From the NCBI GenBank assembly GCA_035235625.1, contig CP141147.1, positions 12,079,001 to 12,143,000 of the forward strand: a stretch of DNA of 64,000 nt. The letters are read 5' to 3'. The translations under genes were made by a program, and so were the position numbers. Within the stretch, counting starts at the first letter, position 1, and every line of letters begins with the position of its first letter. This document shows positions 24,507 through 42,596 of this stretch, piece after piece. Origin of the DNA: Saururus chinensis. Lineage: Eukaryota > Streptophyta > Magnoliopsida > Piperales > Saururaceae. Under the pieces are notes generated by a model. The model saw only the letters and a program-made list of their open reading frames with translations, was not told where the DNA came from and made no database searches.

Positions 24507-25384
24507 TGTTAGAAGTGGGCATTATATTTAATGGGTTAAGCCCATACCATTAAGGTGGGTATAATATTAACATGGGCTAAGCCCATAATATTTATGTGGG
24601 TCAAGTCCATATGGTAAAGAGTGGAAGCCCACTTTGTATTGAATTAGAATCACACATATGAATTGGTTGAAGAAGTGAATAGTCTCACATCGCATAGAAG
24701 AAGGTGATGGTGTTGGTATAGAAGGCACAAGTTTGGCCTTTCAAGTTTAGCCCTTGGGCCAACCCACTTTTGTAGAGGAGAGACATTTTAGACCCATGTA
24801 CCTAGGTAGGCTAACCCGTGCGCGCGCCGCCGGCGCCATCCAGCCAGTTAGTTCAGTTCTCACGCGCTGCCGGCTGGGCCGGGTTGGGTCACATCGGGTC
24901 AACAAGATAATTATTTTTGGGACAAATTCATTTAGTTTCGTTTTCTCTTAACCCAACTTCATTTGGTTTAGTTTTCTATTTATTTGGCTTGGTATCTATT
25001 AGCTATAATGAGTCTGGTTTGATTTCACTAAAGAATGTGTACATTAACGTATGAACGCAGCCATTTGGATGGGACAGGGTGTCCTCCACGGGATTTCCTA
25101 CAAAATCATGAAACATGATTTCTACAACAATCTTTTTCTGGAATTCATCTCCATACTTTATGTGAGATCATTCCATATTGTGGTTCGTTGCATGTACTGT
25201 GTTGAAGGTGCTTCAACAATACGTAGTTGATTGTCTTATCCTGTGAGGCAAACACTCAAGTGAATCTTAAGCACCGTTAAGGAGGGCGAATTCTGTCTTA
25301 AGGACAGTGCAATTTGCTTGATTTGATCATAATCATTTCAGTAAGATTTCTCATCACAATACTTGCAAAGGTACGAAAATAACA
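24507..25384 (+). repeat. 5' LTR of the copia element
   Basis: Matches 34781-35637 along its full length at roughly 85-88% by eye. Repeated GGGTTAAGCCCAT and GGGTCAAGCCCAT words near its start form a set of short direct and inverted repeats. A CpG-dense patch lies at 24820-24840; the matching part of the 3' LTR is TG/CA-rich, as expected from loss of methylated CpG. Confidence 0.9.
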
Positions 25385-25439
25385 ATATTAGGACAAAATT
25401 CCTTACATATTTTCATACTTTACTATTGTGAATGTACAA

Positions 25440-25935
25440 TAGTAAATTTCCAAATTACATTAAGTAAAATTTGAAGATTTAGTGTTCATTTGAAAAAAAT
25501 TTGAATTTTTACTTTTCTGTGTGTAAATTTTTGAAATATTACTGTTCTATGCGTAAATTTTTGAAATTTGACTATTCTGTGCGCAAATTTATAAAATTTT
25601 ACTATTCTATACATAAATTTATGAAATTTTACTATTCTGGATGTAAATTTTTGAAAGATTATTGTTCCATATGTCAGTTTTCTGCACATTACTATTCTTT
25701 GTAATTTTTTGAAAATTTATTGCTCTGCATGCAATTGTTCGAATTTTACTGTCCAACATGCAATTTGGAAATTATATTATGCAATTTTTCACACTGTACT
25801 GTGCTACATGTAATTTTTGATTTTTTATGTGCTAGATGTAATTTTCAAAATTGTACTTCGTGTAATTTTTTGAACTTTACTCTGTTATACTTAATTTCTC
25901 GCACTCTATTGGATGTAATTTTCTGAACTTTGCTG
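25440..25935 (+). repeat. Degenerate ~36-bp tandem repeat in the leader
   Basis: Between the 5' LTR and gag, a word like GTAAATTTTTGAAATTTTAC followed by TATTCTGTGC repeats more than ten times with drift (25501-25935). The unit is about 33-37 bases early on and varies more to the right. Both strands stay open in some frames only because the unit lacks stops there. Leader tandem repeats are known in some plant LTR elements. Confidence 0.85.
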
Positions 25936-26053
25936 AGTTATATATAATTTTTTGAACTTTATTGGGTTGCGTATCATTTTTTATTATTATTTTTGAAAAT
26001 TTTTTTGATATAATTTTTGAAACTGATATTTTCTTCATTTCATTAGAACAGAA

Positions 26054-29000
26054 ATGGTTGCTGAGGGTACCAACTTGATTTCGGTCATTATTCTCACTCC
26101 GATGAATGCTCCTATTCAAATTAAAGGGGAAAAACCAGAAAAGTTCAATGGTGCGGATTTCAAAAGATGGCAACAAAAGATGTTTTACTATCTTACCACA
26201 CTAAATCTGGCCCAATTCCTTCAAGAGGAAGTACCCATTCTCACTGAGGAGAAACGAAATGACAAAACGGCTGTTGCGGTAGTTGATGCTTGGAAGCATG
26301 CGGATTTTCTATGCCGTAATTACATCCTTAACGGGTTGGATAACACATTATATAACGTGTAGAGTCTGATGAAGAGTGCTAAGGCACATTGAGAGTCCTT
26401 AGACAAGAAGTACAAGATTGAGGAAGGTGGAACAAAGAAATTCGTGGTCGGTAAATTTCTTGACTTCAAAACGATGGACTCTAGAACAGTGATCAATCAA
26501 GTTTAAGAACTCCAAGTTATCCTGCATGATATTCAAGCAGAAGGTATGACTTTAAGTGAGTCTTTCCAGGTGCCTACAATAATATAAAAATTACCACACT
26601 CCTGGAAGGACTTTAAGAACTACTTAAAGCATAAGTGTAAGGAGATGAACATGGAAGATTTGATCGTAAGGTTAAGGATTGAAGAGGACAATCGTGCTTC
26701 TAAAAAGAAAACCGGGTGTCATGGCATAGAAGCCAAAGTCAATGTTGTCGAACAAGGGCATAAGAGTAATAGCTTCAACAACAAGAAAATAAAGCATCCT
26801 GTTGGACAGTCAAACAATGACTCCAACAAAGTGAAGTTCAAGGGCAAGTGCAATGTGTGTGACAAGATAGGTTATAAGGCTAATGATTGTCGGAAATGGA
26901 AGAAACAAGATGATTCCAAGAAGAAAAATGCACAAGCCCACATGACTAAAGTGGAGAATCTCTCTAACAATGTGAATGACATCAGCCTTTTCACTGTGAT
27001 TTTGGAAGTGAACATGGTCACTAATGCTAGAGAGTGGTGGGTGGACACTAGGGCCACTCGTCATGTTTGCTCATATAGGAAAATGTTCTCCATCAGCTCG
27101 TAGAAAATGGAGAACAACTTTTCATGTGCAATTCTTCTACCGCTAAGGTTGAAGGTACTGGAAAGGTGGTGCTCAAGATGACTTCGGGTAAGGAACTTAT
27201 GTTCAACAATGTGCTATATATGTGCCTAAAATTTGAAAGAATTTAGTGTCAAGATCATTGCTGAGCAAGAATGGGTTGAAATTGGTATTTGAGTCAGATA
27301 AATTTGTCTTGACTAAGGGTGGGATGTATGTGGGCAAAGGGTTCCTTAATGAGGGGCTTTTCAATCTCAATCTACTAACTATTGTACCTGTTGCTAATAT
27401 TGAGAATGTGAATGCTTCGTCCTCTTATGTGATTGAGTCATATAATGTGTGGCATGGTAGATTGGGACATGTTAATCATGACGCTATGCAAAGATTAATT
27501 AATATGGAATGTCTGCTCAAATTTAATATTGACTCTCATCATAAATGTGAAACTTGTGAGGAAGCAAAATTGACACGGAAATCATTTCAAAGCATTGAGA
27601 GATGTACTGAACGTCTTGAGTTAATTCACAACGATGTCTGTGACTTAAAACTTGTTCAAACAAGAGGAGGTAAAAAGTACTTTATTACATTTATTGACGA
27701 TTGCACTATATATTGCTATATATACTTATTGAGAAGTAAAGATGAAGCTATAGACATGTTTATATTATATAATACAGAGGTTGAGAATCAATTTTGCAAG
27801 AAAATAAAAGTTCTAAGAAGTGATAGAGGTGAGGAATATGAATCACCTTTTGGTGAATTCTGTTCACAACATGGTATTGTACAAACCAAACTATAGCACC
27901 CTATTCACCTCAACAAAATGGTATTGCTGAACAAAAAAATAGAACTTTAAAAGAGATGATGAATGCCATGTTAATAACTTCTGGGTTACCCCAGAACATG
28001 CAGGGGGAAGCTTTGCTTTTAGCAAATTATATTCTCAACAAAATACCTCATAAGAAAACCATACAAACACCATATAAATTATGGAAAGGTCGAAAGCCTT
28101 CCTTCAAATTCTTAAAGATGTGGGGTATTTCGCGAAATTAGCGGTCCCTAATCCCAAGAGAATTAAAATTGGCCTAAAGACCATTGATTGTGTAATCATT
28201 GGTTATGCCAATAATAACAATGCATATCACTTTCTTGTTCATAAATTGGATATTCCTAATGTATATGTTAATATTGTGATTGAATCAAGGAATGCTTCAT
28301 TTTTTGAACATATTTTTCTGTGGAATTCTACACAAAAGGAAAGTTCTCTTAAAAGAACTTTGGATATTGCATAGGACAATAGTGAAGACCAAGAGGGAAA
28401 AGATGATGAACCTAGACGTAGTAAGCATGCTAGAACATCAAAATCCTTTGGTCTAGATTTTTTGACTTATTTGTTATAAAATGAGCCTCAAAGCTTTAAG
28501 GAAGTCATATCCTCTCCTTCAGCACAATATTGGAAAGAGGTTGTCAATAGTGAAATTAAATTCATTATGCAAAATCATACTTAGGAGCTGGTAGACCTAC
28601 CGCCAGGGAGTAAGCCTATAGGATACAAGTAGATATTCAAGAGGAAGATGAAGGTTGATGGATAAATTGAAAAATATAAAGCTAGACTTGTTATCAAATG
28701 ATGCAAGCAAAAGGAAGGTCAAAATTATTTTAATACATATTCACCGATCACAAGGATAACATCCATTAGGATGTTAATCGCTACTGCTGCTTTGTATAAT
28801 CTTTAAATACATCAAATGGATGTGAAGACCGCATTCTTGAATGGTGACTTGAATGAAGAAATATATATACAACAACTTGAAGGGTTTGTTGTGCCGGGTG
28901 AAGAAAACAAAGTATGTAAACTTGTTAAATCTCTTTATGGACTTAAACAAGCTTCTCAGCAATGGCACGAAAATTTTGACAAAATGATGATGTTGAATGG

Positions 29001-30024
29001 ATTCAAAATTAATGAATGTGACAAATGTGTTTATGTCAAAGAAAGACCCGATGGCTGTGTCATTGTATGTTTATATGTGGATGATATGCTCATTATTGGT
29101 ATCAATGATGATTTCATTAAAGCTACTAAGCAGATGTTAAACAAACAATTTGACATAAAGGATATGGGTGTTGCAGATGTTGTACTAGTGATGAAAATCA
29201 CTAGAACATATGATGGATATGCATTATCTCAATCTTATTATATTGAGAAAATTTTAGAGAAATTCAACAAAAATAATAATCGTCCAGTGAGAACACTTGT
29301 AGATGTGACATTACACTTAAGCAAAAACATTGGTGAGAGTATATCACAACCACAATATTCTCAAATTATTGGTAGTCTCAATTACATCATGAATTGTACG
29401 AGACCGAACACAACATACTTAGTATGTAAACTGAGTAGATATAATAGCAACCCAGAGGCAAACCAATAGAAAGCTGTAGTTAGGGTTTTTATATATCTAA
29501 GATATACCTTAAACTATGGACTGCACTATACAAGGTATCCAGCAGTACTAGAGGGTTACTGCGATGCAAAAAGGATATCTAATACCAAAGACTCAAAATC
29601 CACAAGTGGATATGTCTTTACTCATAGAGGTGCAGGAGTATCTTCGAAATCCTCTAAATAATCATGCATAGCAAGATCCACAATGGAATCTAAGTTCTTT
29701 GCATTTGATAAAGCAGGCGAAGAGGCTGAGTGGCTTCGTAACTTTTTAGAGGATATTCCAATGTGGGGGAAACCTATGCCACCTATTTGCATTTATTGTG
29801 ATAGTTAATCGGCTATAGGAATGACACAAAGTAACTTGTATAATGGTAAGTCTCGACATATATGTTAGAGGCATAATACCATAAAACAATTACTCTCTAT
29901 TGGAATAATTTTCATTGAGTATGTTAAGTCAAAAGAAAATATTGTGGATCCTCTTATTAAGGGTTTGATCAAAGAACAAATGAGCAGTTCATCAAGGGGA
30001 ATCGGCTTCAAGCCTATACATTAA
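26054..30024 (+). mobile_element. Gag-pol fossil of the copia element
   Basis: Order seen: Gag (KPEKFNGADFKRWQQKMFYY near the start), zinc knuckle region (CNVCDKIGYKANDC, ~26852), protease region (WWVDTRATRHVC, ~27037), pre-integrase (YNVWHGRLGHVNHDAM, ~27446), integrase core (FITFIDDCTIYCYIYLLRSK, ~27680), reverse transcriptase (MDVKTAFLNGDLNEEIYIQQ, ~28816; CLYVDDMLIIG, ~29070), RNase H ([20 protein letters not shown], ~29559), and a tail ending GIGFKPIH at 30024. Integrase before reverse transcriptase marks it as Ty1/copia. Gag would form particles; pol would copy and insert the element. It is a broken fossil with many interruptions and cannot be active. Confidence 0.9.
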
Positions 30025-30249
30025 CGAGTCACCATAATGGCAACCCAGCCTAGTTGATTGGAGATCCCAAGATCTAGGTTTAAAGGGACAACAGAATTTT
30101 GGGGAATTCAAGGAGAATCACTAATGAGATAACATCTTGTTCCTATTCCTATAATGAGATAGTCATGCATGTAGAGTGAATCAGGATAAGCTTTGCTTTT
30201 AATGGTTTTTTAGCTTTAATTAGTTCAAGTGGACACTACAACAAAATGT

Positions 30250-30670
30250 AGTAATATCGACGCTTAAACAACTATTTGCGACGAATGAAAAAGCGCCGCA
30301 AAAAAATAAACTATTAGTGGCGCATTTTCGTATGCGTCGCTAATAGTCATATATTAGCGACACTTAGTTTAAAGCGTAGCTACTACTAATCATATTAGCG
30401 ACACTTATAATAGTTCCCCTATTTGTGACGCTTTATACAACCATCGCTAAAAGGTATATATTGTAAATAAAAAAAGAAAAAAAAACATCACTATTAGTGA
30501 CCCTTTTCGTAAGCATCGCTAATAGCTTTTGCAATAGTGATGCTTATTCAAAAGCATCGCTAAGAGTGCTGCTAGTTATGAAATAAAAATTTTGAGTTAT
30601 TAGCGACGCTTTTAAGTAAGCATCGCAAATACCGTTTCGAATAATGACGCTTGTTGACAAGCATCGCTAA
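30250..30670. repeat. Left subterminal repeat zone of CACTA copy 1
   Basis: About a dozen partly matching words of the form TTAGCGACGCTT or AAGCGTCGCTAA occur, many arranged as facing pairs about 10-30 bases apart that could fold into hairpins (for example around 30293-30345 and 30600-30675). In CACTA elements such sites bind the element's own DNA-binding protein. Confidence 0.8.
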
Positions 30671-30884
30671 TAGCTATATTAATTAATTTTATTTAATAAA
30701 TAAATATTAAAAAATTATAATAAACTTCCTAAATATAATATATTTTTTCAATATTCACTATTTGTATATACAATAAATAAATATTAAATTTTCAACAAAA
30801 ACTAGTGTGAATAATAGATTAAACTTTCACTATTTATATTTAATAAATTTTATTATTAATTTCAAAATATAATTTATAATAAAA

Positions 30885-30956
30885 GAGAGAGTGAAGAGAG
30901 TGCATGGAGAGTGAGAATGAGGAGGGAGAGGGATCCGAGAGAGAGGGAGAGGGAGT

Positions 30957-30995
<39 letters not shown>

Positions 30996-31115
30996 GAAAG
31001 GGACAGAGGGAGGAGAGAAAGAGGACAGAGGGAGAGAGAGAGGAGAGAGGGAGAGAAGAGGGAGGAGAGAGAGGGTCGAGAAAGAGAGCTGAGGAGAGAA
31101 AGAGGAAATTTTTTT
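30885..31115 (+). repeat. Purine tract 1 of CACTA copy 1
   Basis: About 220 bases made almost only of G and A on the forward strand, mainly GAGAGAG and GGGAGA words with few T or C. Long mirror-like purine tracts can form triplex (H-DNA). Confidence 0.9.
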
Positions 31116-31163
31116 CTTTTATTTATTTTATATTTTTATTTAAAAATTAAAAGAATAAAAATA

Positions 31164-31197
31164 TATTAGCGATGTATAGGCCTATACATCGCTAATA
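31164..31197. repeat. Perfect 34-bp palindrome
   Basis: TATTAGCGATGTATAGG is followed at once by its exact reverse complement CCTATACATCGCTAATA. It has no loop, so it could extrude as a cruciform or make a hairpin in RNA. It is the cleanest of the palindrome islands. Confidence 0.97.
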
Positions 31198-31332
31198 CCT
31201 TTGAGTATTAGCAACGTATACACATATATGTCGTTAAGACACTTAGTATTAGTGACGTATATGTCTATGCGTTCCTAATACATTTTTATTTATTTATTAA
31301 TTTATTTTAAAATAAAAATTATAAAATAGAGA

Positions 31333-31735
31333 GGATATAGAGAGAGGGGGAGGGAGGGAGGGAGGAGAGAGAGAGAGGAGGGTGGAGAGAGAGAGAGGGA
31401 GAGAGAGAGAGATAGAGGGGGAGAGAGAGAAAGGAGTAGGGTGTAGAGAGAGGGAGGGAGGAGAGAGAGATAGAGGGGGAGGGAGAGAGGAGTAGGGTGT
31501 AGAGAGAGAGGGAGGGAGGAGAGAGAGATAGAGGGGAGAGAGAGAGAGAGGAGTAGGGTGTAGAGAGAGAGGGAGGGAGGAGAGAGAGAGAGGAGTAGGG
31601 TGTAGAGAGAGAGGGAGGGAGGAGAGAGAGAGAGGAGTAGGGTGTAGAGAGAGAGGGAGGGAGGAGAGAGAGATAGAGGGGGAGGGAGAGAGGAGTAGGG
31701 TGTAGAGAGAGAGGGAGGGAGGAGAGAGAGAGAAA
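31333..31735 (+). repeat. Purine minisatellite in CACTA copy 1
   Basis: A purine-rich unit that starts GAGTAGGGTGTAGAGAGAG and continues with GGGAGGGAGG and GAGAGAGA words repeats about six times (starts near 31433, 31490, 31550, 31593, 31635 and 31695). Unit length steps between about 41 and 59 bases as a TAGAGGGGGAGGGAGAGAG insert is present or absent. Near identity of the units shows recent expansion. Confidence 0.85.
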
Positions 31736-31777
31736 AAAAATTACTTTAAAAAATATAATTTGTTTTTAAAAAATAGG

Positions 31778-33115
31778 TAGTAGCGACGTATTGGGCTAGG
31801 CGTCGTTACTATTCTTGGTAGTAGCGACGTATAGCACCATGCATCGCTACTACCTATTTTTGAAATTAAAAAATTGAATGGAAGAGAGAGAGAGAGAGGA
31901 AGGGAGGAGAGAGAGGGGGAGAGAGGGAGAGAGATTGAGAGAGAAGGGAGGAGAGAGAGAGGGAGAGAGGAGAGAGAGAGAGATAGGGGGAGTGAGGAGT
32001 GAGAGAGATAGAGGGGGAGGGAGGAGTGAGAGGGAGAAAACAAATTTAATTAAAAATTACTTTAAAAAATTTTCAAAATTTTTTTTAAAAAATAGGCAGT
32101 AGCGATGCATAGTTCTATGCATCGCTACTACCTAAGAGTAGTAGTGACAAATAGACCTCTGCATCGTTACTACCTAATAGAAGTGTGATGCATTGGGCTA
32201 CGCGTTGCTACTACCCTTGGTAGCGACGCATAGCACCATGACCACTACTACCTATTTTCAAAAATAAGAAATTGAATGAAAGAGAGAGAGGAGGGATGAG
32301 AGAGAGAGAGGGAGAATAAATTTTAATTAAAAATTACTTTAAAAAAATATAAAAATTTAAAAAAAAAGGTAGTAGCAACCCATAATTCTTTGCGTCGCTA
32401 CTGCCTAAGAGTAGTAGCGATGCATAGACTTGTGCGTTGCTACTACCTAATAAATATTGAATGAAAGAGAGAGAGGGAGGGTGGAGAGGAAAGAGGGAGA
32501 TGGGAGGGTGAGAGGGGGGAGAGAGAAAGAGTGAGAGGAGGGATGAGAGAGAGAGGGAGGGAGGAGAGAGAGAGATAGAAGGGGAGGGAGGAGTGAGAAG
32601 GAGAAAAAGATTTTAATTAAAAATTACTTTAAAAATTATAAAATAATTTAAAAAAAGGTAGTAGTGACGCATAGTTCTATGCATCGCTACTACCTAAGAG
32701 ATGTAGTGACGCATAGACCTGTGTCGCTACTACCTAATAGTAGTAGCGACGCATTGGGCTATGCATTGCTAGTACCCTTGGTAGTTGCCACGCATAGCAC
32801 CATGCGTGGCTACTACCTATTTTTAAAAATAAAAAATTGAATGAAAGAGAAAGAGGGAGGATGGAGAGAGAGGGGGGAGAGGGGAGAGAGTGAGGGAGGG
32901 TGGGTGGAGTGGAGGGAGGGAGGGAGAGAGAGAGGAGTGTGGAGAGAGAGAGGGGGAGAGAGGGATGGACAAGAGAGAGAGGAGAGGGTGGAGAGAGAGT
33001 GAGTAGTGTAGAGAGAGAGTGAGGAGAGAAAAATATAAAATATATTTGTTTTAGCGACGCTTATCTATCAGCGACGCTTATCTATCAGCGACACTCTTGA
33101 AGAGCGTCGTTAATA
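31778..33115. repeat. Palindrome islands alternating with GA tracts
   Basis: Palindrome islands of the form GTAGTAGCGACGCAT...ATGCGTCGCTACTACC lie at about 31778-31857, 32094-32255, 32370-32450, 32655-32820 and 33045-33112. GA tracts lie between them at about 31878-32038, 32278-32317, 32462-32603 and 32845-33032. AT-rich spacers with AATTAAAAATTACTTTAAAA recur after the tracts. So the whole module (island, AAATTGAATGAAAGAGAGAG, tract, AT spacer) is itself a degenerate tandem repeat of roughly 250-400 bases. Confidence 0.85.
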
Positions 33116-33146
33116 ATATTTCTTTTTTTTAAATATTTGATGAGGG

Positions 33147-33820
33147 CGAAATTTTGTCCGCATCTTATAACATGCCCCCCTCCCTCGTATTACGCCCCGC
33201 AGCCTCCTTTGCCTCTCGCCTCCTCTGCTCTGCCGCGTCGCCCGCTTCCCCTTCACCCACGGCCTGCCGCCCTCCGGTCCCCCATCTCCCTTCCCCGCCC
33301 CCCTCTCCACCCTGCCCTACCCCCTCCCCCCTCTCCCTCAGCTCCGGTCCCCCCTCTATCCCTGCTCTTCCCCCCCAACCTCTGATTTCCAGAGGGGTAG
33401 GGGGAGGAAGGAGGGGGCGGAGCCGGGGAGAGGGAGGTCCTCCCGCTCGACCTCCCCCCCTTCCCCCCCCCCCCTCCCCTCTCCCCCCCCACCCAATGCT
33501 GCCCTCCCTCCCCCAGCTAGCCCCCCACCCCTAAGGGGGAGGAGGGATGGGGCGAAGCTTGGGAGAGGGTGGCCGCCGCCGCAGTCCTCCCCCACCCCCC
33601 ATACTTCAGTCCCCCACTCCCCCTCCCCCTCTCCGCCCACTCTCCTCCCCCCCAATCCCCCTCTTGCTCCCCCTCCCCTTGCTGGACCCCCGCCCTTCCC
33701 ATGCTCCCCCTCCTCCCTCCCCCCCGTTTGCCGCCGCCGGGGTTCCGGATTTCGATGCCCCTCCGTCCTCCGGCCCCTCGGCTCCCCCTCCCTTAGCCGG
33801 TCGGTCACTGGGCCAACCGG
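33147..33820. other. GC-rich block inside CACTA copy 1
   Basis: An abrupt block of very high GC, C-rich on the forward strand with many CCCCTCCC words, CCGCCGCCGC and several CpG sites. Two related inner segments (about 33395-33450 and 33528-33602) each pair a GGGGGAGGA-type purine run with GGGAGAGGG and a facing CCTCCC run, giving inverted repeats. Several frames are open only because the sequence is low in complexity. It may be a captured and expanded piece of a host 5' region or a structural part of the element. No protein is recognised. Confidence 0.7.
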
Positions 33821-33846
33821 GGATTGTTTTTAAAAATAAAATTAAT

Positions 33847-34385
33847 TATTAGAGACGCTTAAAAATGTCACTATTTAATTTCAATTTAATTATTATTATA
33901 ATTTTGATTTTTTTAATTGTTTTTATTTTATTAGTGACGTATAGAAAGCCTCACTAATAATGAATTATTAGCGACATTGTAATTAAACGTTGCTAATAAG
34001 TAAATTTTAAATTTTTTTATTCGCGACATATATGTAAATGTCGCTAATAATTCCTTATTAGCGATGCTTATGTATATACGTCACTAATAAAAAAAAATTA
34101 TTTTTTAAAAAAATTATTTTTCTATTAGTGATGAAACAAAAGCGTCGCTAATAGCTTATCGTTAGCGACGCTAAAGAATATACGTCGCTAATAAGTTATT
34201 ACTAGCGATGTATAGTTATACATCGCTAATACGCCTTATTAGCGACGCTTTTTGTATACGTTGCGAATTAGTAATAGCGATGGTACTTTTTTCGACACTT
34301 TTAGCGACGTTTATTATACGTCGCTAATAGTTATTAGTAACGCTTATGGGTCTATTAGCGAAGCATAAATGCGTCGCTAATAGTC
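33847..34385. repeat. Right subterminal repeat zone of CACTA copy 1
   Basis: Dense TTAGCGACG/CGTCGCTAA words, many in facing pairs (for example TTAGCGACGCTAAAG with TACGTCGCTAATAAG near 34160-34195, and TAGCGATGTATAG with TATACATCGCTAA near 34204-34230). It mirrors the left zone. Confidence 0.85.
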
Positions 34386-34780
34386 CTTTTTGTTGTAGAG
34401 GGGGTATAGCGGGATACTCCTAATAAGAATCACCTATATGAGTGTGAAGGGGCCGTTTCTATGAGGATTTTAAGGGTAAATCTTCTAGAGGACTCATGAA
34501 AACCAGGTTTATTCAGGGCCAAAATGAACACAATCATGAGAACCACATTGTGTCTAAGAAGTGACTGTGTGAATTCTATTGTCTTGATTTATACAAACGG
34601 CTCAACAGTTCAAGACATCATGTTCACTGATTATCCATTAGACCCGATAGTTTTTACATGGGAAGGTTCAAAGTCAAAAGCTATGTTTCCCCCATGCACG
34701 ATCTCTTTAATATTTGCTTTTACAGTTTATCTGCATTGTTTTGCATAGTTATTCAGTCAATTCTCATTTATGTGGGGGAT

Positions 34781-35637
34781 TGTTAGAAGTAGGCATTATA
34801 TTTAATGGGTTAAGCCCATATCATTAAGGTGGGTATAATATTTACATGGGTTAAGCCCATAATATTTATATGGGTCAAGCCCATATGGTAGAGAGCCCAA
34901 GCGTACTTTATATTGAATGAGAATCATATATGTGAATTGGTTGAAGAAGTGAATAGTTTCACATCACCAAGCAGAAGTTGTTGGTGTTGGTATATAAGGC
35001 ACAAATTTGGTCTTTCAAGTTAGGCCCTTGAGCCAACCCACTTTTGTAGGGAAGTGATATGTTGGACCCATGCACATAGGTGGGCTAACCCACATACATG
35101 TGTCGCCGCTGCCGTTCAGCTTGGTTCGATTTGGTTCGCACACGCGACAGGCCGGTCCAGGTCGGGTTGGGTCAACAAGATAATTAATTTTGGGACAAAT
35201 TCATTTGGTTTGGTGTTCTATTAACCCAAATTTATTTGGTTTGGTTTTTATTAGCCAAAACAGGTCCGGTTCGATTTTACTAAAGAATGTGGTTGTTAAC
35301 GGATGGACACATCCATTTGAACGGGATAGGGTGTCTTCAACGGGATTTCCTATAAAATCATGGAAAACGATTTCTAGAACAATCCTTTTCTTGATTTCTA
35401 TATCCTTACTTTCTGTGAGAGCATTCCATACCGTGGTTCACTGCATGTACTGTGTTGAAGGTGCTTCTACAGTACGTGGTTGATAGTCTTATCCTGGGAG
35501 GCAGACGCCCAAGTAAATCTTAAGCACCGTTTAGGCAGGCGAATTTTGTCTTAAGGATAGATCGATTTGCTTGATTCGATCATAATTATTCAAGTAAGAT
35601 TTCTCATCACAATACTTGCAATGGTACGAAAATAACA
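34781..35637 (+). repeat. 3' LTR of the copia element at 24507
   Basis: Starts TGTTAGAAGT right after the polypurine tract and ends AAATAACA. A TATA-like GGTATATAAGG lies at about 34987. It is 857 bases long against 878 for the 5' LTR. Confidence 0.9.
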
Positions 35638-36787
35638 AAAACAAGGGAAAGATCATTATTTTGACCTGATAGGATCAGTTATCCAGGCAATCAAATTCCT
35701 ATAAGCATTCCTTTGGTTTTGTATAAGCTGATTTCAGCATTAGGCCACCGTCCCTACATATATGAGCAGAGTCCAATCAAATTGGCCTAACCCTAGCTCC
35801 AATCTTTCCCCCGCGTGTAGCTTTCATGTTTTTGGAAAGATCGGAGACATTGTTGTCTGATTCCTAGGATCATATTTTTATCATCCCTCAACTACCGATG
35901 AGCTTAGACTTATTCTTATTTCCTCACTCCCCCATGAGTAAGTTCCTTTCTTCTTCATGCTCCAACGCCAAACCATAATATTTCACTTAGTTAGAAAATT
36001 AATTGAGGTTTTTTTTATGAAAAAGGAAAGCTTCACCCTTTTTCCTTCTTTTGGAAATAGCTCATGCTCATCCCTTTCTTAATGAATGCTCTATCCAACT
36101 CAAAAGAGCTGGGCTGCCCTAAGCTGCATGATTCTCGACTTTAGAAAACATGAAACAATTTCTTTGGTTCTTGTTTTTTGGATAGACTGTACTGCTTAAC
36201 AAACTTTCTAAACAAACATTTTCATAAGTTTTAGCATGATTCAGCAGCCAGTGCGCAAAACTACATAGTGCAGCACACCTCCCTCTTACGCCTAGCCATG
36301 CCTACCCCTAGCAAAATTCCCTAGTGCACTTGTGCATCGTGAAAGCATATCACAAAATTCAATCACGCAAGTACAACTCATCAGCCGCAAGAGATCCCTA
36401 AAATTCAATCACGCATTAATAGCTTGCTCCATCTTAGTTTTCTATCAATTGTGATTGAGATTTCCTCTTCCTTTTGCCAGCTTTCTTTCCCGCTGAAGTT
36501 GGGTGTGAGTAGTTGGAGTATGTCATTTAATTTATGAATCTCTAAATCCATCTGACTATTTTTATATCTTACTCCTTTCTTGCTTGACCTTTTTTTTTGT
36601 GAAGAAACATAGATAGGGATAACGACAGAATGAACAACTAAACTTAACGATAACTTTTTTATAAACGTTCACTTGCATCACATACACAAGTGCTCTCTGA
36701 ACTGTGCACTAATTTCACCCTTGCTCTCCCATTTGAATTCGCTTAGCCTTAGGCCATGCTAATCCAATAACATGGAATAAAAAAATT
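35638..36787. other. Stretch between copia and MULE-like element
   Basis: No coding frame, RNA gene or repeat end could be supported. This is the DNA that joined 24506 before the copia insertion. Confidence 0.45.
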
Positions 36788-36789
36788 GC

Positions 36790-37497
36790 AGCGTAACTTA
36801 TAGAAAGCTGGTTGCCTGAGGGAAACCATTTCAATAGGAGCCCTACTTCCCTCAGTAATAAACCCATTTATTAGTAGAATGTGGCTATTTGTACCCATGA
36901 AAACTCCTCTGTCCCCCAAAAAGAGTAAAAAGAAAACATCTACTTTTTCTTTACTCTAATACCTGATCCTTCCCCCATCATTTCTCTACTTCCCCCAAGT
37001 CCCTACCCCCTCCCCCTGCTTGCCGCTTCTTTCTCAACTCCAGTGAGGCAGAGACCCTACCCTTCTTCGCCCTCCTTTTCCTCTTCCTCTTCTCTGTGGC
37101 TATCTCTAGCTTGACTGTTGGTTGCAGATGCAACCAAAAATGAGGAAAGGGAACTGAGAAGGAGGAGGAAGAAGTGAAAAAGAGGAATAAGAGGAGGAGG
37201 AGGTGGGGTGTGACCGGGCTGATTTGGCCATATTCTGAGGTAGGATTGGAGCACGTTTTGCCACCATCGAAGGTGCCGACTGCTGGTGCTGAAGAAGAAG
37301 AAGGGAGGAAGGCATGGGGTAAAAAGATATTATTTGTAAAATATGAAAAATGAGTGATTTAAAAAAATGTTTATGAGGTAATTAAGAAATCGGGGACAGA
37401 GGAGTTTAACAGGTATAAATAGCCACATTCATATTAGTAACAGGGCTGAACGCATGTTTGTTACATCACTAGGGAGAGCAGTTTTATAGTAACTTCT
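36790..37497. mobile_element. MULE-like element with long terminal inverted repeats
   Basis: The left arm (36871-36916: TTAGTAGAATGTGGCTATTT, then GTACCCATGAAAACTCCTCT and GTCCCC) faces a right arm (37392-37440) whose reverse complement reads GAATGTGGCTATTTATACCT, then GTTAAACTCCTCTGTCCCC. The match is about 38 of 44 bases. Weaker inverted similarity continues outward to GTAACTTATAGAAAGCTG (36793) and the reverse complement of AGTTTTATAGTAAC (37480-37493), for arms of ~125 bases. Long arms and a ~0.7 kb non-coding core suit a Mutator-like non-autonomous element. I could not find a clear 9-bp target duplication. The core has a GC- and purine-rich part (37000-37320) that may be a captured host piece. 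Confidence 0.6.
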
Positions 37498-38221
37498 TTC
37501 TTGGCAATGCATATATGCACTAGCATGCTTCACTACAACAAAATGTAGTATTAGCGACACTTTAATTAGAGATGCAAAGCAAGGCGTCACTACAAATTAG
37601 TACTTGCGACACTTATAAAAGCGCCAGAAAAAAAAATTTATTCACAATGCTTTTCATAAAGCGGCGCTAATAGTACATATATTAGCAATTCATGATTAAA
37701 AAGTGTCCCTAATAACAAACTATTAGCGACACTTTAAAAAAATGTTGCTAATAGTTGTGTTATTAGCAACGCTTTACAAAAGCGTCACTAAAAGTTATAT
37801 ATTTTAAATATAAAAAATTGCACTATTAGCGATGTTTTTTTATAAAGCATCTATGATAGTTGTATTATTAGCGACACTTTATAAAAAGCATCACTAATAT
37901 CTCTACTATTAGCAATGCTTTACAAAATGCATCGCTAATAGTTCTACTATTAGTGACGCTTTTTTATGTTTTAAATAAAAAACATTATAACTATTAACAA
38001 CGCTTTTTTGAAAGCATCGCTAAACATATTAATAATAGCAACGTGTCTATAAAAGTGTTGCTAATAATTGTGCCTATTAGCGACATTTCAATAAAAACAT
38101 TACAAATAAAATAAATTTATTTTAAAAAAAAAGTAAGATTATTATCAACCCTTACAAAAAAATGTTTCTAATAGTTTTTTATTATTTTTATTTTATATTT
38201 ATTATTTAAATATATAATAGT

Positions 38222-40195
38222 GTAGATAGAGAGTAGGGTAGAGAGAAGAAGAGAAGAGAGGAGAGAGGGAAAAGAGAGAGAGGGAAAAGAGAGAGAGTGG
38301 AGAGAGAGTGGAGAGAGAGACACAGAACAAAGAGGGTCTAGAGAGTGTATGTAGAGAGAGAAGAGAGGGAGATGAATTTATTTTTAAGATTTTTTTATAA
38401 AATATTTATATTTTAAAAATAATAAAAATAAAATAAAATAAGAATTATTAGCTACGCAATGTTCTATGTGTCTCTAATACCAAGCATATTAGCAGCATTT
38501 ATCTCTATGCATTGCTAATCACATTAAATTATAAAAATAAAAAATTCTAAAAAATTTAAATTATAGGAGAGAGAAAATAGAGAGGGGAGAGAGTGGAAAA
38601 AAGAGTGAATGAAGAGAGAGAGAGAGAGAACGAGAAAGAGTGAAAAGAGAGTGAGAGAGAGACGGTTGAGAGAGGAGTTTAATTTTTTATTTTTTTATTT
38701 TTTTATAAATTATTATATTTTAAAAATAATAAAAAGAGAGAGGGTAGAGAGAGACAAGAGAGAGTGGGTAGAGAGAGGAGAGAGGAAGATAGACGATAGA
38801 GAGTGCATAGAGAGAGAGAAGAGAGAGTGTGAAGAGAGAGAGTGTAAAGAGAGAGAGGAGAGAGATGGTACAGAGTGTGGTGTAGAAAGTGAAGAGAGGG
38901 AGAGAGTAGAGAGAGGGAGAGTGAAGAGATAGAGGAGATAAGGGCTCAAAAGAGAGAAGAGAGAGGGGCTAGAGAGAGAGTTTGTGTTTAGAGATAGGAG
39001 AGGGAGATGAAATTTAATTTAAATTTTTAATTTTTTTATAAAATATTAAATTTTAAAATATAAAAATAAAAAAATTATTAATGACACTTATTTCTATGCA
39101 TCACTAATAACTTTTAATTTATTTCTTTTGTATTATTTTTAAAATATAATTATAAAAATAAAAAATTAAATTTAGAGGAGAGATTGTGTAGAAAGAGATG
39201 AGAGATGGTACAGAGAAAGGAGAGAGAGTGAGAGAAAAAGAGGACAACGACGGTAGAGACAGAAAAGAGTGAGAGAGAAGAGAGAGGACCTAGAAGGAGT
39301 GTGTAGAGAGATAGAGGAAGAGAGAGGAGAGAGAGAGAAATGATGGAAAGAGGAGAGAGGGGCTAAAGAGAGTGTGTGTGGAGAGAGAAGAATTTAATTT
39401 AATTTTTTAAATTTTTTATAAAATATTATATTTTAAAAATGATAAGAAATAAAAAAAAATTAGCCAAGCATAGGAATATGTGTCACTAATAACTTTTAAT
39501 TTAATTATTTTGTAATATTTTTAAAATATAATTATAAAAATATAAAAAAATTAAAATATGGGAGAGAGAGTGTGTAGAGAGAGAGGAGAAAGGATAAGAG
39601 AGAGAGAATGAGAGAGTGAAGAGAGAGAAAGAGAGGAGAGAGATTGTAGGGTGAGAGGAGAAAAGTGGGAGAGAGAGGTGCTCGAGAGAGTGTGTAGATA
39701 GAGGGAGAGAGAGGTGCTCGAGAGAGTGTGTAGATAGAGGAAGAGAGAGGACAGATGAGAGAGAGAAAGGGTAAAAAGAGGAGAGAGGGGCTAGATAGAG
39801 AGTGTGTGTAAAGAGAGATGAATTTAATTTTAGTTTTTTATAAAATATTATATTTTAAACATAATAATAAAGAAATAAAATAAAATTATTAGTGACACAT
39901 TGGTTCATGGGTTGCAAATACATAATATATTACCGACGCATATTACCATGCGTCACTAATTACATAGTGTATTAGCCACATTTATTTTTGTGTTGCTAAT
40001 AATTTTTAATTATTTTTAATATAATATAAAAAATTTAAATTAGAGGGGAGAGTGTGTAGAGGGAGAGCAAAGAAGAAGAGATAGGAGAGAGAAAGTATAG
40101 AGAGGATAGAGAAGGTAGAGAGAGAGAGTGAGAGCGAGGAGAGAAGTGAGAGGGATAGCGGGGAGAGAAGAGAGAGGGTAGAGAAAGAGGTAGAA
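38222..40195 (+). repeat. GA tracts and islands of CACTA copy 2
   Basis: Purine tracts lie at about 38222-38375, 38563-38672, 38735-39010, 39173-39390, 39560-39820 and 40040-40195. Between them lie AT-rich spacers of the form ATTTTTTATAAAATATTATATTTTAAAA and short islands (near 38442-38512, 39075-39115, 39463-39495 and 39885-40005) with TTAGTGACAC/GTGTCACTAA-type words. The module length is about 350-450 bases, as in copy 1. Confidence 0.8.
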
Positions 40196-40399
40196 TTACA
40201 TATTATTTTTAAAAATTTATTAAAATCAAATATGTATTTTAGGGACCCATAAGGATATATTATATCCATATGCATCGCTAATATATAGTGTAGTACCAAC
40301 GCATATCCTCATGTGTCGCTAATATATTGTTTTAAAATTTATTTTATTAATTTTAAAATATAATATATAATTTAAAATTATCAAAAAATCTAAATTATA

Positions 40400-40510
40400 T
40401 TCACCCCTCTCTCTTCTTTCCTCTCTCCCCCACTCTCCTCGCTCTCTCTCCTCTTTCCTCTCTCTTCTCTCCCCTCTTTTCTCTCTCTCTCTCTAACTCT
40501 CTCCCTTTTA
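40400..40510 (-). repeat. Pyrimidine tract: a GA tract with the strand flipped
   Basis: In an array where every other tract is GA on the forward strand, this one is CT on the forward strand (CTCTCTCCTCTTTCCTCTCT and similar). A GA tract returns at 40560-40655. So one module was inverted, or two facing tracts arose, giving a large purine/pyrimidine inverted repeat. Confidence 0.85.
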
Positions 40511-40917
40511 TCATATATTATATTTTATAATTAAATAAACAATATCATACATTTAATTCGAGAAAGAGGGGGAAGGGGAAGAGAGAGGTAGAGTGGGAGA
40601 GAAGAGAGTGTATAAAGAGAGAGTATAGAGAGAAGAGGAGAGAGAGAGAGAAACTTTTTTATTGATTTTATTTTATTTGCGACTCTTACAAGAAGCATCA
40701 TAAATAGTTTCATTTGTGACACTTACTTGTAAGTGTCGCAAGCATATTATTAGTGACGCTTAGCCAAAGGCATCGCAAATAGTTTCATTATTTGCTACAC
40801 TTATAGGTAAGCGTTACAAATAAAAAAAATTATTAGCAATGCGTAGCCATGAGCGTTGCAAATAGTTATACTATTTGTGGCTCTTATATAAGCATCACTA
40901 ATATGTTTCAGCGAGCG

Positions 40918-41205
40918 CAATATTAATACTCCCTACCTATCTCACCCCCCTCTCTCTGCCCATCTCTTCTGCCCCATTTTCCCCTTGCGACAGCCGCTTC
41001 CCACCCCCGTCAGGCCGCCTCCGACTGTCTCCGCCGCTGTGGGTCTGTCGCCCGAGCCCCCCCCCCCCCCCAATTCTGCCCTATTCGCCTCCGGCCAGAG
41101 CTGCCGCCCCCTCTTCTTCTCCCCCCTTTTCTCCACTCCGATCGCCTCTGGCTAGAGCCCCCGCCCCTCCTCTTCTCCCCCCTTCTTCTCCACTCCGTCC
41201 ACCAA
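40918..41205. other. GC-rich block at the right edge of CACTA copy 2
   Basis: An abrupt C-rich block with CCGCCGCTGTGG, a C run of 15 or more near 41058-41074, and two near-repeats of CCTCTTCTTCTCCCCCC with CTCCACTCCG (about 41111-41140 and 41168-41200). It is alike in style to the block in copy 1 but not clearly alignable with it. Confidence 0.6.
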
Positions 41206-42596
41206 TAGGTTTCCTGACATGATGGCTAACCAACTAGCTAGCTTTGTTGAATTTTCAAATAGCCAGTAGTGAGGCTAGGCATCATAGCAACAACATAACA
41301 TTTAAGCTCAACCTATCTCCCCTATATGGCATAAGGCTTGCATATTGCTGGAGTGGTAGCCAAAGTGGCTAGATGGGCATACCTAGACCGAAGTTTGCTA
41401 AACATCCCCAAAATGCTCCCCTAAGACTTTCCAAGTTTATACAATGCATGGGGACATGTTAAAATTCCAAACAACAAGCTAGGTAAATACGTGTCCCAAT
41501 GTAGCCAGCCATGTTTGCACAACATTGTGTGCATTTTGCCCAGCGTTGCTCAAACAAGTTGCACATTATTGCGGGCCTTTCCTATAACACATGCACACGT
41601 ATTGTGCATCGTTGTCGGTAGTTTTTGCAACGCATTGCATCCAATATACAACACACCAGCATGTGTGCTCCATAGCATGTGTCACTAGCACTACTCTTTA
41701 ATTTTCGATGATACTGTCCCCACTCAATCTGTCAATGTCAGTCTTACTCAATTGTGGCCTATGTCTCACTTCTTTCTACGATGCTTTACATTATTCACAC
41801 CACAACTTAGATAATTCCATGTATTGCATGTTGGCATAACTCGCTTTCACTCAGCAAGCCTTGCCTCATCTAGCCATTGGATGATGATTTTTTTTTGCTC
41901 GTTGTGCCTTTTCCACACCAACAAAGGCCAAAGTACATTGTTGTAAAGATTGCTCGGATAAGAGAATGTACCCAACTACTACATTTGAGTTGGTACTGCA
42001 TGTCAAGCAAGAAAGGATAAACAAATCATACCCTGCACTTGAGAGATTTCCAAGTTGCATACACTTCGGGTAATTTTTTACTACACTTCAGCCACACCTT
42101 GCAGCTCCCAGCGGCATGATTACACCATGACGTCAATCCTCAACACTCTTGTCGACTCCAATTGATGTCCCCCAACAATATAATGCCACCCTACTTATAC
42201 CAAAGCTCTTTTATATATTACATCACTACCCTAGGACTGGGCCTTCCCCATTTAAATGTCTAGCCAAACCATGTCCTCATCACCACCAAGAACTCCTAGG
42301 TCACAACCACTTAGAAATTTCTGGTTTTTCCAATTCACTCATGTTCCCTCTTCTGATGTGCTCTAGAGGTCTACTCTAGCTCAAGAGCAGCAAGTTTGCC
42401 CAAGCTTCTCGTAACCAACATGGTCATCAAACTATTACACCACTTTTGACACGACACTATTTTTGCATATGTTGCTCTGGTAGCGGCTGAGGACCACTTT
42501 GCCCAACTAGTCAGGTCACTACTTAGAACTAACAAAGTTTGAATGGGTGCCGCCTTGCCAACTAATTTTGGCATACATGTTTAGCAACTAAGGAGT
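41206..42596. other. Gene-free stretch, possibly degraded element interior
   Basis: Moderate GC, with many short words in common within it (GTTGCACA, TTGCACAACATTG, GCACATTATTG). No protein domain is seen on either strand. It ends where TGTCACAACCC opens the LTR-like block. Confidence 0.4.

What the first reader, a model, noticed from the sequence alone, without database searches (positions are those of the whole stretch)
30885..33115. Palindrome islands alternating with GA tracts inside a CACTA transposon
Five to six islands of AGCGACGC-type palindromes are each followed by a long GA tract and an AT spacer, as a degenerate tandem module of ~250-400 bp. CACTA elements are known for subterminal repeats near their ends, but an inner array that spaces transposase-like sites with possible triplex-forming purine tracts is not something I know as described. 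It could act as a multi-site protein scaffold, a hairpin RNA source or a self-expanding satellite. Function is inference.
Basis: partly seen in the sequence, partly recalled or inferred. Interest (0 to 1): 0.72.

Follow-up and report, generated by a model that had tools for sequence, protein, structure and literature searches.

The report
Plant transposon family with hairpin-purine array
A dispersed family of plant CACTA-type jumping genes, in which no gene was found, carries an ordered inner repeat of hairpin-like palindromes alternating with long GA-rich tracts; palindromes at the ends are a known kind of part, while the inner array looks like an undescribed variant that seems inherited and decaying rather than proven to do anything.

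Summary
Window 30234-34400 is a 4,167-bp insertion with CACTA-type ends and a 3-bp target duplication, inside an old copia element; 40 of 40 scored matches to the joined flanks run across the empty site. Inside, six palindrome islands alternate with GA tracts. The array-type modules align in one order: up to four palindromes, AT spacer, purine tract, AT spacer.

The array belongs to a family: of 30 loci chosen only by a 20-bp end, 28 carry purine tracts within 1.5 kb inward, all mainly on one strand. The same palindrome core forms the 3' subterminal repeat of transposase-bearing CACTA elements: leaving out the query itself, 4 of 39 such ends have a correctly oriented transposase within 15 kb, 0.085 expected.

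Most likely: a non-autonomous CACTA family whose subterminal-type palindromes were duplicated inward together with a GA microsatellite, expanded by tandem duplication and slippage, and now decaying neutrally (symmetrical CpG decay, little arm compensation in the core). A selected scaffold or hairpin-RNA role is unproven. The mobilising element was not identified. No description was found in the held papers; repeat libraries could not be searched.

The parts
24507..25385 (+). 5' LTR of the host copia-type retrotransposon (old)
   Evidence: blastn to 34781-35638, 81.7% identity over 884 columns
34781..35638 (+). 3' LTR of the same copia-type element
30231..30233 (.). left target-site copy GGA (GGG in the two empty-site copies read)
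30234..34400 (+). non-autonomous CACTA-type element E1, 4,167 bp
   Evidence: ends by TIR scan; 40 of 40 scored matches to the joined flanks span the empty site; two read base by base
30234..30253 (+). 5' end CACTACAACAAAATGTAGTA (405 exact copies in the genome, both strands)
30255..30669 (+). 5' subterminal block, 8 scored palindrome units
30884..31108 (+). purine tract 1 (scored part 30937-31108, 172 nt)
31167..31277 (+). island 1, 2 scored palindromes, end type
31339..31740 (+). purine tract 2, 402 nt, with inner repeats of about 42 bp
31781..31849 (+). island 2, two palindromes, array type (loops as in P3 and P4)
31880..32040 (+). purine tract 3, 161 nt
32100..32250 (+). island 3, four palindromes P1-P4 by alignment (two pass the strict cut, 32100-32210)
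32279..32316 (+). short purine tract 4 (read by eye; below the 40-nt cut)
32373..32442 (+). island 4, palindromes P1-P2
32463..32610 (+). purine tract 5, 148 nt
32662..32812 (+). island 5, four palindromes P1-P4
32843..32999 (+). purine tract 6, 157 nt
33052..33112 (+). island 6, end-type units including a 17-bp tandem repeat
33150..33830 (+). C/CT-rich block, no convincing gene; weak matches in some other copies, none to the C-rich block of E2
33850..34379 (+). 3' subterminal block, 10 scored palindrome units
34388..34400 (-). 3' terminal inverted repeat TTTTGTTGTAGAG (one mismatch to the 5' TIR)
34401..34403 (.). right target-site copy GGG
37531..41200 (+). second, more decayed copy E2 with the same 20-bp 5' end, islands, purine tracts and a C-rich block; 3' end not found, so the right limit is approximate

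Best explanation
E1 is a non-autonomous CACTA-type DNA transposon, one member of a dispersed family (405 exact 5' ends and 338 exact 3' ends of 20 bp in the genome). Shown: the ends, the 3-bp duplication, the empty site, the shared module order, the fixed purine strand, and an array that varies in module number. Inferred: the palindromes descend from the family's own subterminal repeats, the sites to which a transposon-encoded TNPA-like protein binds. One block of up to four palindromes next to a GA microsatellite was duplicated in the interior of a founder element. Module number then changed by tandem duplication or unequal exchange, and tract length by slippage. A transposase supplied in trans by TPase-bearing CACTA relatives moved the copies. 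After insertion the copies decay as methylated, unselected DNA. Any benefit of the extra sites would lie with the element while it was mobile.
For: Exact insertion and target duplication. Two further complete elements with TSDs ATT/ATT (L067, found by its array) and TAA/TAA (L068, chosen only by having both exact ends). L055 has TTA on both sides. Eight end pairs among the 100 + 100 listed exact ends lie 3.66-5.65 kb apart. Array in 28 of 30 loci picked by the 5' end alone, purine mainly on the inward-reading strand in all 28. Twenty-one array-type islands align in order. Within-element identity 0.844 against 0.766 between elements, 0 of 5000 label shuffles as high; L067 modules share private variants and its modules 2 and 4 are 94% alike. 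The palindrome core forms the 3' subterminal block of TPase-bearing CACTA elements: 4 of 39 similar ends besides the query, all oriented as expected, 0.085 expected. No listed TPase within 20 kb inward of 100 exact 5' ends, and none within 56 kb of 43 array places (38 clusters). CpG to TG and CA in nearly equal numbers, and little correlation of core arm columns.
Against: The exact mobilising element was not found. The TPase-bearing relatives read have different TIRs (CACTATAAGAAAA in L060; CACTACAAAAAAA in L062 and L063); in 3 of 5 upstream stretches read (L064-L066) no end was recognised, and no matching 5' end was found for the L060/L061 element. One of 100 exact 3' ends has a TPase 11.5 kb inward, which could not be read. 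Without L067 the within-element excess is small: 0.812 against 0.785, 129 of 5000 shuffles as high; nearest neighbour in the same element for 13 of 21 modules only. Four of the six 10-kb loci chosen by the array (L056-L059) show only one of the two end types. Partner columns of the palindromes are on average slightly more correlated than re-paired ones (44 and 47 of 5000 permutations as high). No protein binding has been shown here.
Confidence: 0.75

Rival explanations
1. Selected scaffold: the inner array adds many binding sites for the TNPA-like protein, spaced by stiff or nucleosome-poor purine and AT tracts, so that elements with arrays win in the competition for transposase or form a stronger synaptic complex.
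For: Array present in 28 of 30 end-selected loci with constant strand and shared order. Array palindromes share the core with the end repeats. TNPA is described as recognising subterminal repeats as cis-determinants (passages of PMC2613891).
Against: Constant strand and order also follow from common descent. The number of array-type islands ranges from 2 to 7 in three complete elements and islands hold 2 to 4 scored units, so no fixed spacing is kept. Purine purity of 94-96% is compatible with slow neutral decay.
Confidence: 0.25
2. Hairpin-RNA or cruciform source: transcripts through the islands fold into hairpins that feed siRNA production and silence the family.
For: Four stretches from three islands fold far better as single-stranded DNA than their shuffles (z -5.5 to -7.3). 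Partner columns slightly more correlated than re-paired ones.
Against: CpG to TG, which would keep a G-U pair in the sense RNA, is no commoner than CpG to CA (array type 96 against 104; end type 181 against 165; summed), and core columns 9-13 show phi between -0.08 and 0.16 only. No small-RNA data at hand; no Rfam match at gathering score in 30000-42000.
Confidence: 0.12
3. Captured satellite: the element swallowed a pre-existing satellite array, as described for some Chenopodium CACTA elements.
For: Precedent of a 171-bp satellite inside CACTA elements (PMC8978399 section 10).
Against: Array palindromes share their core and a period near 40 bp with the element's own end blocks. The array occurs in 28 of 30 end-selected loci. 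Of six 10-kb loci chosen by the array, all six carry at least one family end, two carry both; so arrays outside such elements were not seen, but few were read.
Confidence: 0.1
4. Coincidence of an ordinary GA microsatellite and scattered subterminal repeats in one copy.
For: GA microsatellites are common in plants (recalled).
Against: Family-wide occurrence and shared order.
Confidence: 0.02

Closest known systems
Tgmt* of soybean and the En/Spm (CACTA) elements it is compared with (PMC2613891; passages seen)
   Same: 13-bp CACTA-type TIR, 3-bp target duplication, a subterminal motif reported to form 12 stem-loops at one end and 2 at the other, motifs with a GC-rich part.
   Different: In the passages seen the stem-loops are at the ends and the 20.5-kb element encodes a transposase; here the palindromes also fill the interior, alternate with purine tracts, and no coding part was found.
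Jozin-type CACTA elements and satellite arrays (Chenopodium; PMC8978399 abstract, passages and section 10, PMC7320549 passages)
   Same: A tandem array inside CACTA elements.
   Different: A 171-bp captured satellite near the 3' end of transposase-bearing elements, or a 40-bp satellite grown from a tnp2 fragment; 'palindrom' does not occur in either text.
Helentron-carried satellite-like repeats (oyster, PMC7492417; title and start of abstract seen)
   Same: Non-autonomous mobile elements that carry short tandem arrays around a genome.
   Different: Another superfamily and organism; the repeat itself was not compared.
TPase-bearing CACTA elements of the same genome (L060/L061; L062 and L063)
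   Same: CACTA-type ends; L060 has 11 scored palindromes with the same TAGCGACGC core beside its end.
   Different: Different TIR letters; no purine array beside the ends in the parts read.

Membership tests
CACTA (En/Spm) superfamily, non-autonomous member | terminal inverted repeats beginning CACTA | tested here: met
   CACTACAACAAAA and, one mismatch, TTTTGTTGTAGAG in E1; 13-bp perfect inverted pairs in L067 and L068
CACTA (En/Spm) superfamily, non-autonomous member | 3-bp target-site duplication | tested here: met
   TAA/TAA in L068, ATT/ATT in L067, TTA/TTA in L055; GGA/GGG in E1 with GGG in the two empty sites read
CACTA (En/Spm) superfamily, non-autonomous member | subterminal direct and inverted repeats of one motif | tested here: met
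   8 and 10 scored palindrome units at the two ends of E1
CACTA (En/Spm) superfamily, non-autonomous member | subterminal repeats shared with a Transposase_21 (tnp2) element that could act in trans | tested here: inconclusive
   Same palindrome core as the 3' block of TPase-bearing elements, but no TPase element with the same TIRs was read
CACTA (En/Spm) superfamily, non-autonomous member | binding of a TNPA-like protein to the repeats | not testable with these tools
   needs a binding assay
Autonomous CACTA element | Transposase_21 coding region inside | tested here: not met
   E1 has ten ORFs of 61-150 aa, of low complexity to the eye (not scanned against Pfam one by one); the genome-wide Transposase_21 search lists no place in E1, and the nearest of 150 listed TPases to any of 43 array places is 56 kb away
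Jozin-type CACTA with captured satellite | simple satellite monomer array beside a transposase gene | tested here: not met
   Composite palindrome and purine module, no transposase found

The most novel reading that the evidence does not exclude
A CACTA family has turned its interior into a modular 'landing array': repeated palindromic transposase-binding sites held apart by one-stranded purine tracts. The array works in cis to capture transposase and so lets a gene-less element outcompete its own autonomous source. Expansion of the array is then the element's route to fitness.
Probability: 0.13. Interest if true: 0.65.

Novelty: new variant of a known kind. Interest (0 to 1): 0.38.

Why it matters
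Non-autonomous transposons are usually seen as deletion leftovers. Here a CACTA family in which no gene was found carries, in nearly every copy sampled by its end, an ordered composite array built from the same kind of palindrome that marks its ends. It is a clear case of binding-site-like repeats spread through an element together with a microsatellite, and a natural series (2, 4 and 7 array-type islands in three complete elements) in which the effect of site number on transposition could be tested. It also shows one route by which complex tandem repeats are dispersed in a plant genome.

Tried and rejected
Tried without result: Rfam scan of 30000-42000, no match at gathering score. Pairing of TPases with the family's own exact ends: 0 of 100 listed 5' ends (of 405) and 1 of 100 listed 3' ends (of 338) have one of 150 listed TPases within 20 kb inward (one search had used 82 of the 3' ends and fewer TPases); the one candidate could not be read. 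C-rich block: weak matches in some other copies, none between E1 and E2. The ORFs were not scanned one by one against protein families.

Paper searches: CACTACAACAAAA 0 papers; CACTA + GA-rich + microsatellite + internal 0; CACTA + polypurine + subterminal 0; CACTA, subterminal, palindrom, tandem repeat, GA-rich at 4 of 5 gave 1 grape repeat paper without 'GA-rich' (listing only); CACTA, purine, tandem array, transposon, hairpin at 4 of 5 gave 16, 12 listed, none on this by title; CACTA and binding-site terms gave 24, 20 listed, of which I saw passages of PMC2613891; motif letters anywhere gave 999, the 15 listed unrelated by title; CACTA with tandem repeats and satellite at 4 of 5 gave 30, 12 listed, the Chenopodium papers first. 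Papers listed but not opened could hold more. Repeat libraries and other plant genomes are not held, so an existing name cannot be excluded.

Rejected: chance (shuffles); single-copy oddity; clear present selection for hairpins. In one search only 28-nt units from 53 held sequences were used: 440 distinct units (count printed), of which 140 array-type and 234 end-type were counted and 66 unclassified were dropped. Units had been picked by similarity to the consensus, which biases against covariation. Partner columns were slightly more correlated than re-paired columns (44 and 47 of 5000 permutations as high). In the end type this comes from co-switches at columns 14/25, 15/24 and 2/37; in the array type largely from columns with one or two double changes (8/31, 15/24, 16/23), with smaller values at 2/37, 13/26 and 14/25. 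I read it as perfect-palindrome subtypes, not continuing compensation. Island alignment dropped the three end-type islands (E1_0, E1_5, L058_0) of 24; groups with a single scored palindrome, and islands outside the ranges I set in L055-L059 and L067, had already been left out. In one search the place used as query, which I had chosen because it lay near a TPase, was counted (5 of 40); one search leaves it out (4 of 39).

Full report
Observation. The region 30885-33115 holds six palindrome islands alternating with purine (GA) tracts and AT spacers. Five tracts of 148-402 nt are 93.6-95.7% purine. The whole element scores 32 palindrome units against a mean of 0.18 and a maximum of 2 in 60 dinucleotide-preserving shuffles.

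The element. A scan for CACTACAACAAAA finds the 5' end at 30234 and the inverted 3' end, with one mismatch, at 34388-34400. The element lies between the coding part and the 3' LTR of a copia-type element (named from the look of its sequence and LTRs, not by a family search) whose LTRs (24507-25385 and 34781-35638) are 81.7% alike. When the flanks are joined without the element and without one 3-bp copy, the 40 scored matches of 571 candidates all run across the joint, 38 of them over all 300 bases, at 89-91% identity. Two were read and show GGG at the joint; the one-base length difference lies 20-odd bases to the left of it. So the duplication is GGG with the left copy now GGA, and E1 is 30234-34400, 4,167 bp. 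Its ten open frames of 61-150 aa look of low complexity.

A family. The 20-bp 5' end occurs 405 times exactly (202 forward, 203 reverse; reversed-letter control 0), and a 20-bp 3' end 338 times (167 and 171; control 0). Among the 100 + 100 listed places, 8 pairs have both exact ends in the right geometry, 3.66-5.65 kb apart. One of these, L068, was read: TSD TAA/TAA, 17 scored palindromes, seven purine tracts on one strand (1,244 nt) and one 68-nt pyrimidine tract near the 3' end. L067 is an 8.4-kb member with TSD ATT/ATT and an unrelated-looking stretch of about 3.2 kb inside one purine tract. L055 is a 2.45-kb member made of little but ends, palindromes and purine tracts. The perfect 22-bp form AGCGACGC-N6-GCGTCGCT occurs at 189 places (reversed-letter control 0), and a 781-bp piece of the array gives 418 match pieces, often several per array, from 40 scored of 3,074 candidates.

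Array and polarity. Thirty loci were taken only because they hold the exact 5' end (the first 30 on C1). Of these, 28 have purine tracts of 40 nt or more within 1.5 kb inward (59-744 nt), with pyrimidine tracts in 4 of 30 and always shorter; 30 of 30 have at least 4 palindrome units; 3 of 30 have any tract in the 1.5 kb outside. In L058 the tracts are pyrimidine, but the end read there is the 3'-type end, so the polarity agrees. E2 has one 91-nt pyrimidine tract among its purine tracts, an exception. Common descent is enough to explain polarity. Of the six 10-kb loci chosen by the array, two show both ends (L055, L067) and four show one (L056-L059).

Module order. Twenty-one array-type islands from seven elements align. 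A full island has four palindromes of about 40 nt in fixed order with different centres, then a conserved AT stretch ending in TTGAATGAAAGAGAG or a close variant (L067: TTAAATGAAAAATAGAG), then the purine tract, then an AT stretch. Shorter islands lack some units. Within-element identity averages 0.844 (33 pairs) and between-element 0.766 (177 pairs), and no label shuffle of 5000 was as high; without L067 the difference shrinks to 0.812 against 0.785 (129 of 5000 shuffles as high), and the nearest neighbour is in the same element for 13 of 21. In L067 the modules share private variants, and modules 2 and 4 are 94% alike, which points to duplication of a multi-module block.

Origin of the palindromes. 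The genome holds at least 152 Transposase_21 matches. The left end of L060 (CACTATAAGAAAATGGGGTATTAGCGACGC...) carries 11 scored palindromes of the same core 7.9 kb from such a transposase. That place was chosen because of this nearness. Of the other 39 scored genome places similar to that end, 4 have a listed transposase within 15 kb, all on the inner side and reading toward the end; 0.085 were expected by chance, Poisson P 2e-6, and none was found in another geometry. So the AGCGACGC palindrome is very probably the 3' subterminal repeat of transposase-bearing CACTA elements here. Upstream stretches of five further TPases were read: two (L062, L063) start with CACTACAAAAAAA and a looser AGCGAC motif, in three no end was recognised. 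In maize Spm/En the TNPA protein recognises subterminal repeats, and the soybean Tgmt* subterminal repeats form stem-loops (passages of PMC2613891). The palindromes are thus a known kind of part; their repetition through the interior with purine tracts is the unusual thing.

Is it kept by selection? In 140 array-type and 234 end-type units the four CpG sites have changed to TG or CA in nearly equal numbers (96/104 and 181/165, summed), as methylated unselected DNA would. Core partner columns 9-13 show phi between -0.08 and 0.16. Over all 15 pairs the mean partner phi (0.077 and 0.051) exceeds that of other column pairs (-0.003 and -0.012), reached by 44 and 47 of 5000 re-pairings. In the end type this comes from columns 14/25, 15/24 and 2/37, which I read as ancient subtypes, each self-complementary; in the array type largely from a few double changes. 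Single islands can fold well as DNA, but that follows from being palindromes. I find no clear sign of hairpin maintenance after insertion. A role during the mobile phase is not excluded.

Comparison with print. CACTA elements with satellite arrays are described in Chenopodium (PMC8978399 section 10; PMC7320549 passages), but with different arrays. Searches of the held library for CACTA with GA-rich, polypurine, purine or palindromic arrays found no description in what was listed. Repeat libraries and other plant genomes could not be searched. I rate it a new variant of a known kind.

Noticed in passing
window 24507-35638: E1 is nested in an old copia-type retrotransposon (LTRs 81.7% alike) with at least 40 related copies in the genome.
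   Followed up: partly
window 37531-41200: A second, more decayed member of the same family lies 3.1 kb downstream of E1, with no 3' end found and one pyrimidine tract at 40404-40494.
   Followed up: partly
L067 2198-5403: An unrelated-looking stretch of about 3.2 kb interrupts a purine tract of a complete element, probably a nested insertion.
   Followed up: no
G000 C1:50050616/50052231 and C1:50102602/50104209: Two pairs of outward-facing 3' ends about 1.6 kb apart, 52 kb from each other, look like a duplicated arrangement.
   Followed up: no
window 33150-33830: A C/CT-rich block between the array and the 3' subterminal repeats has weak matches in some other copies; its origin is unknown.
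   Followed up: partly
G000 C1:36235720-36247818: The one listed exact 3' end with a Transposase_21 match inward (11.5 kb) is a candidate autonomous partner; it could not be read.
   Followed up: no
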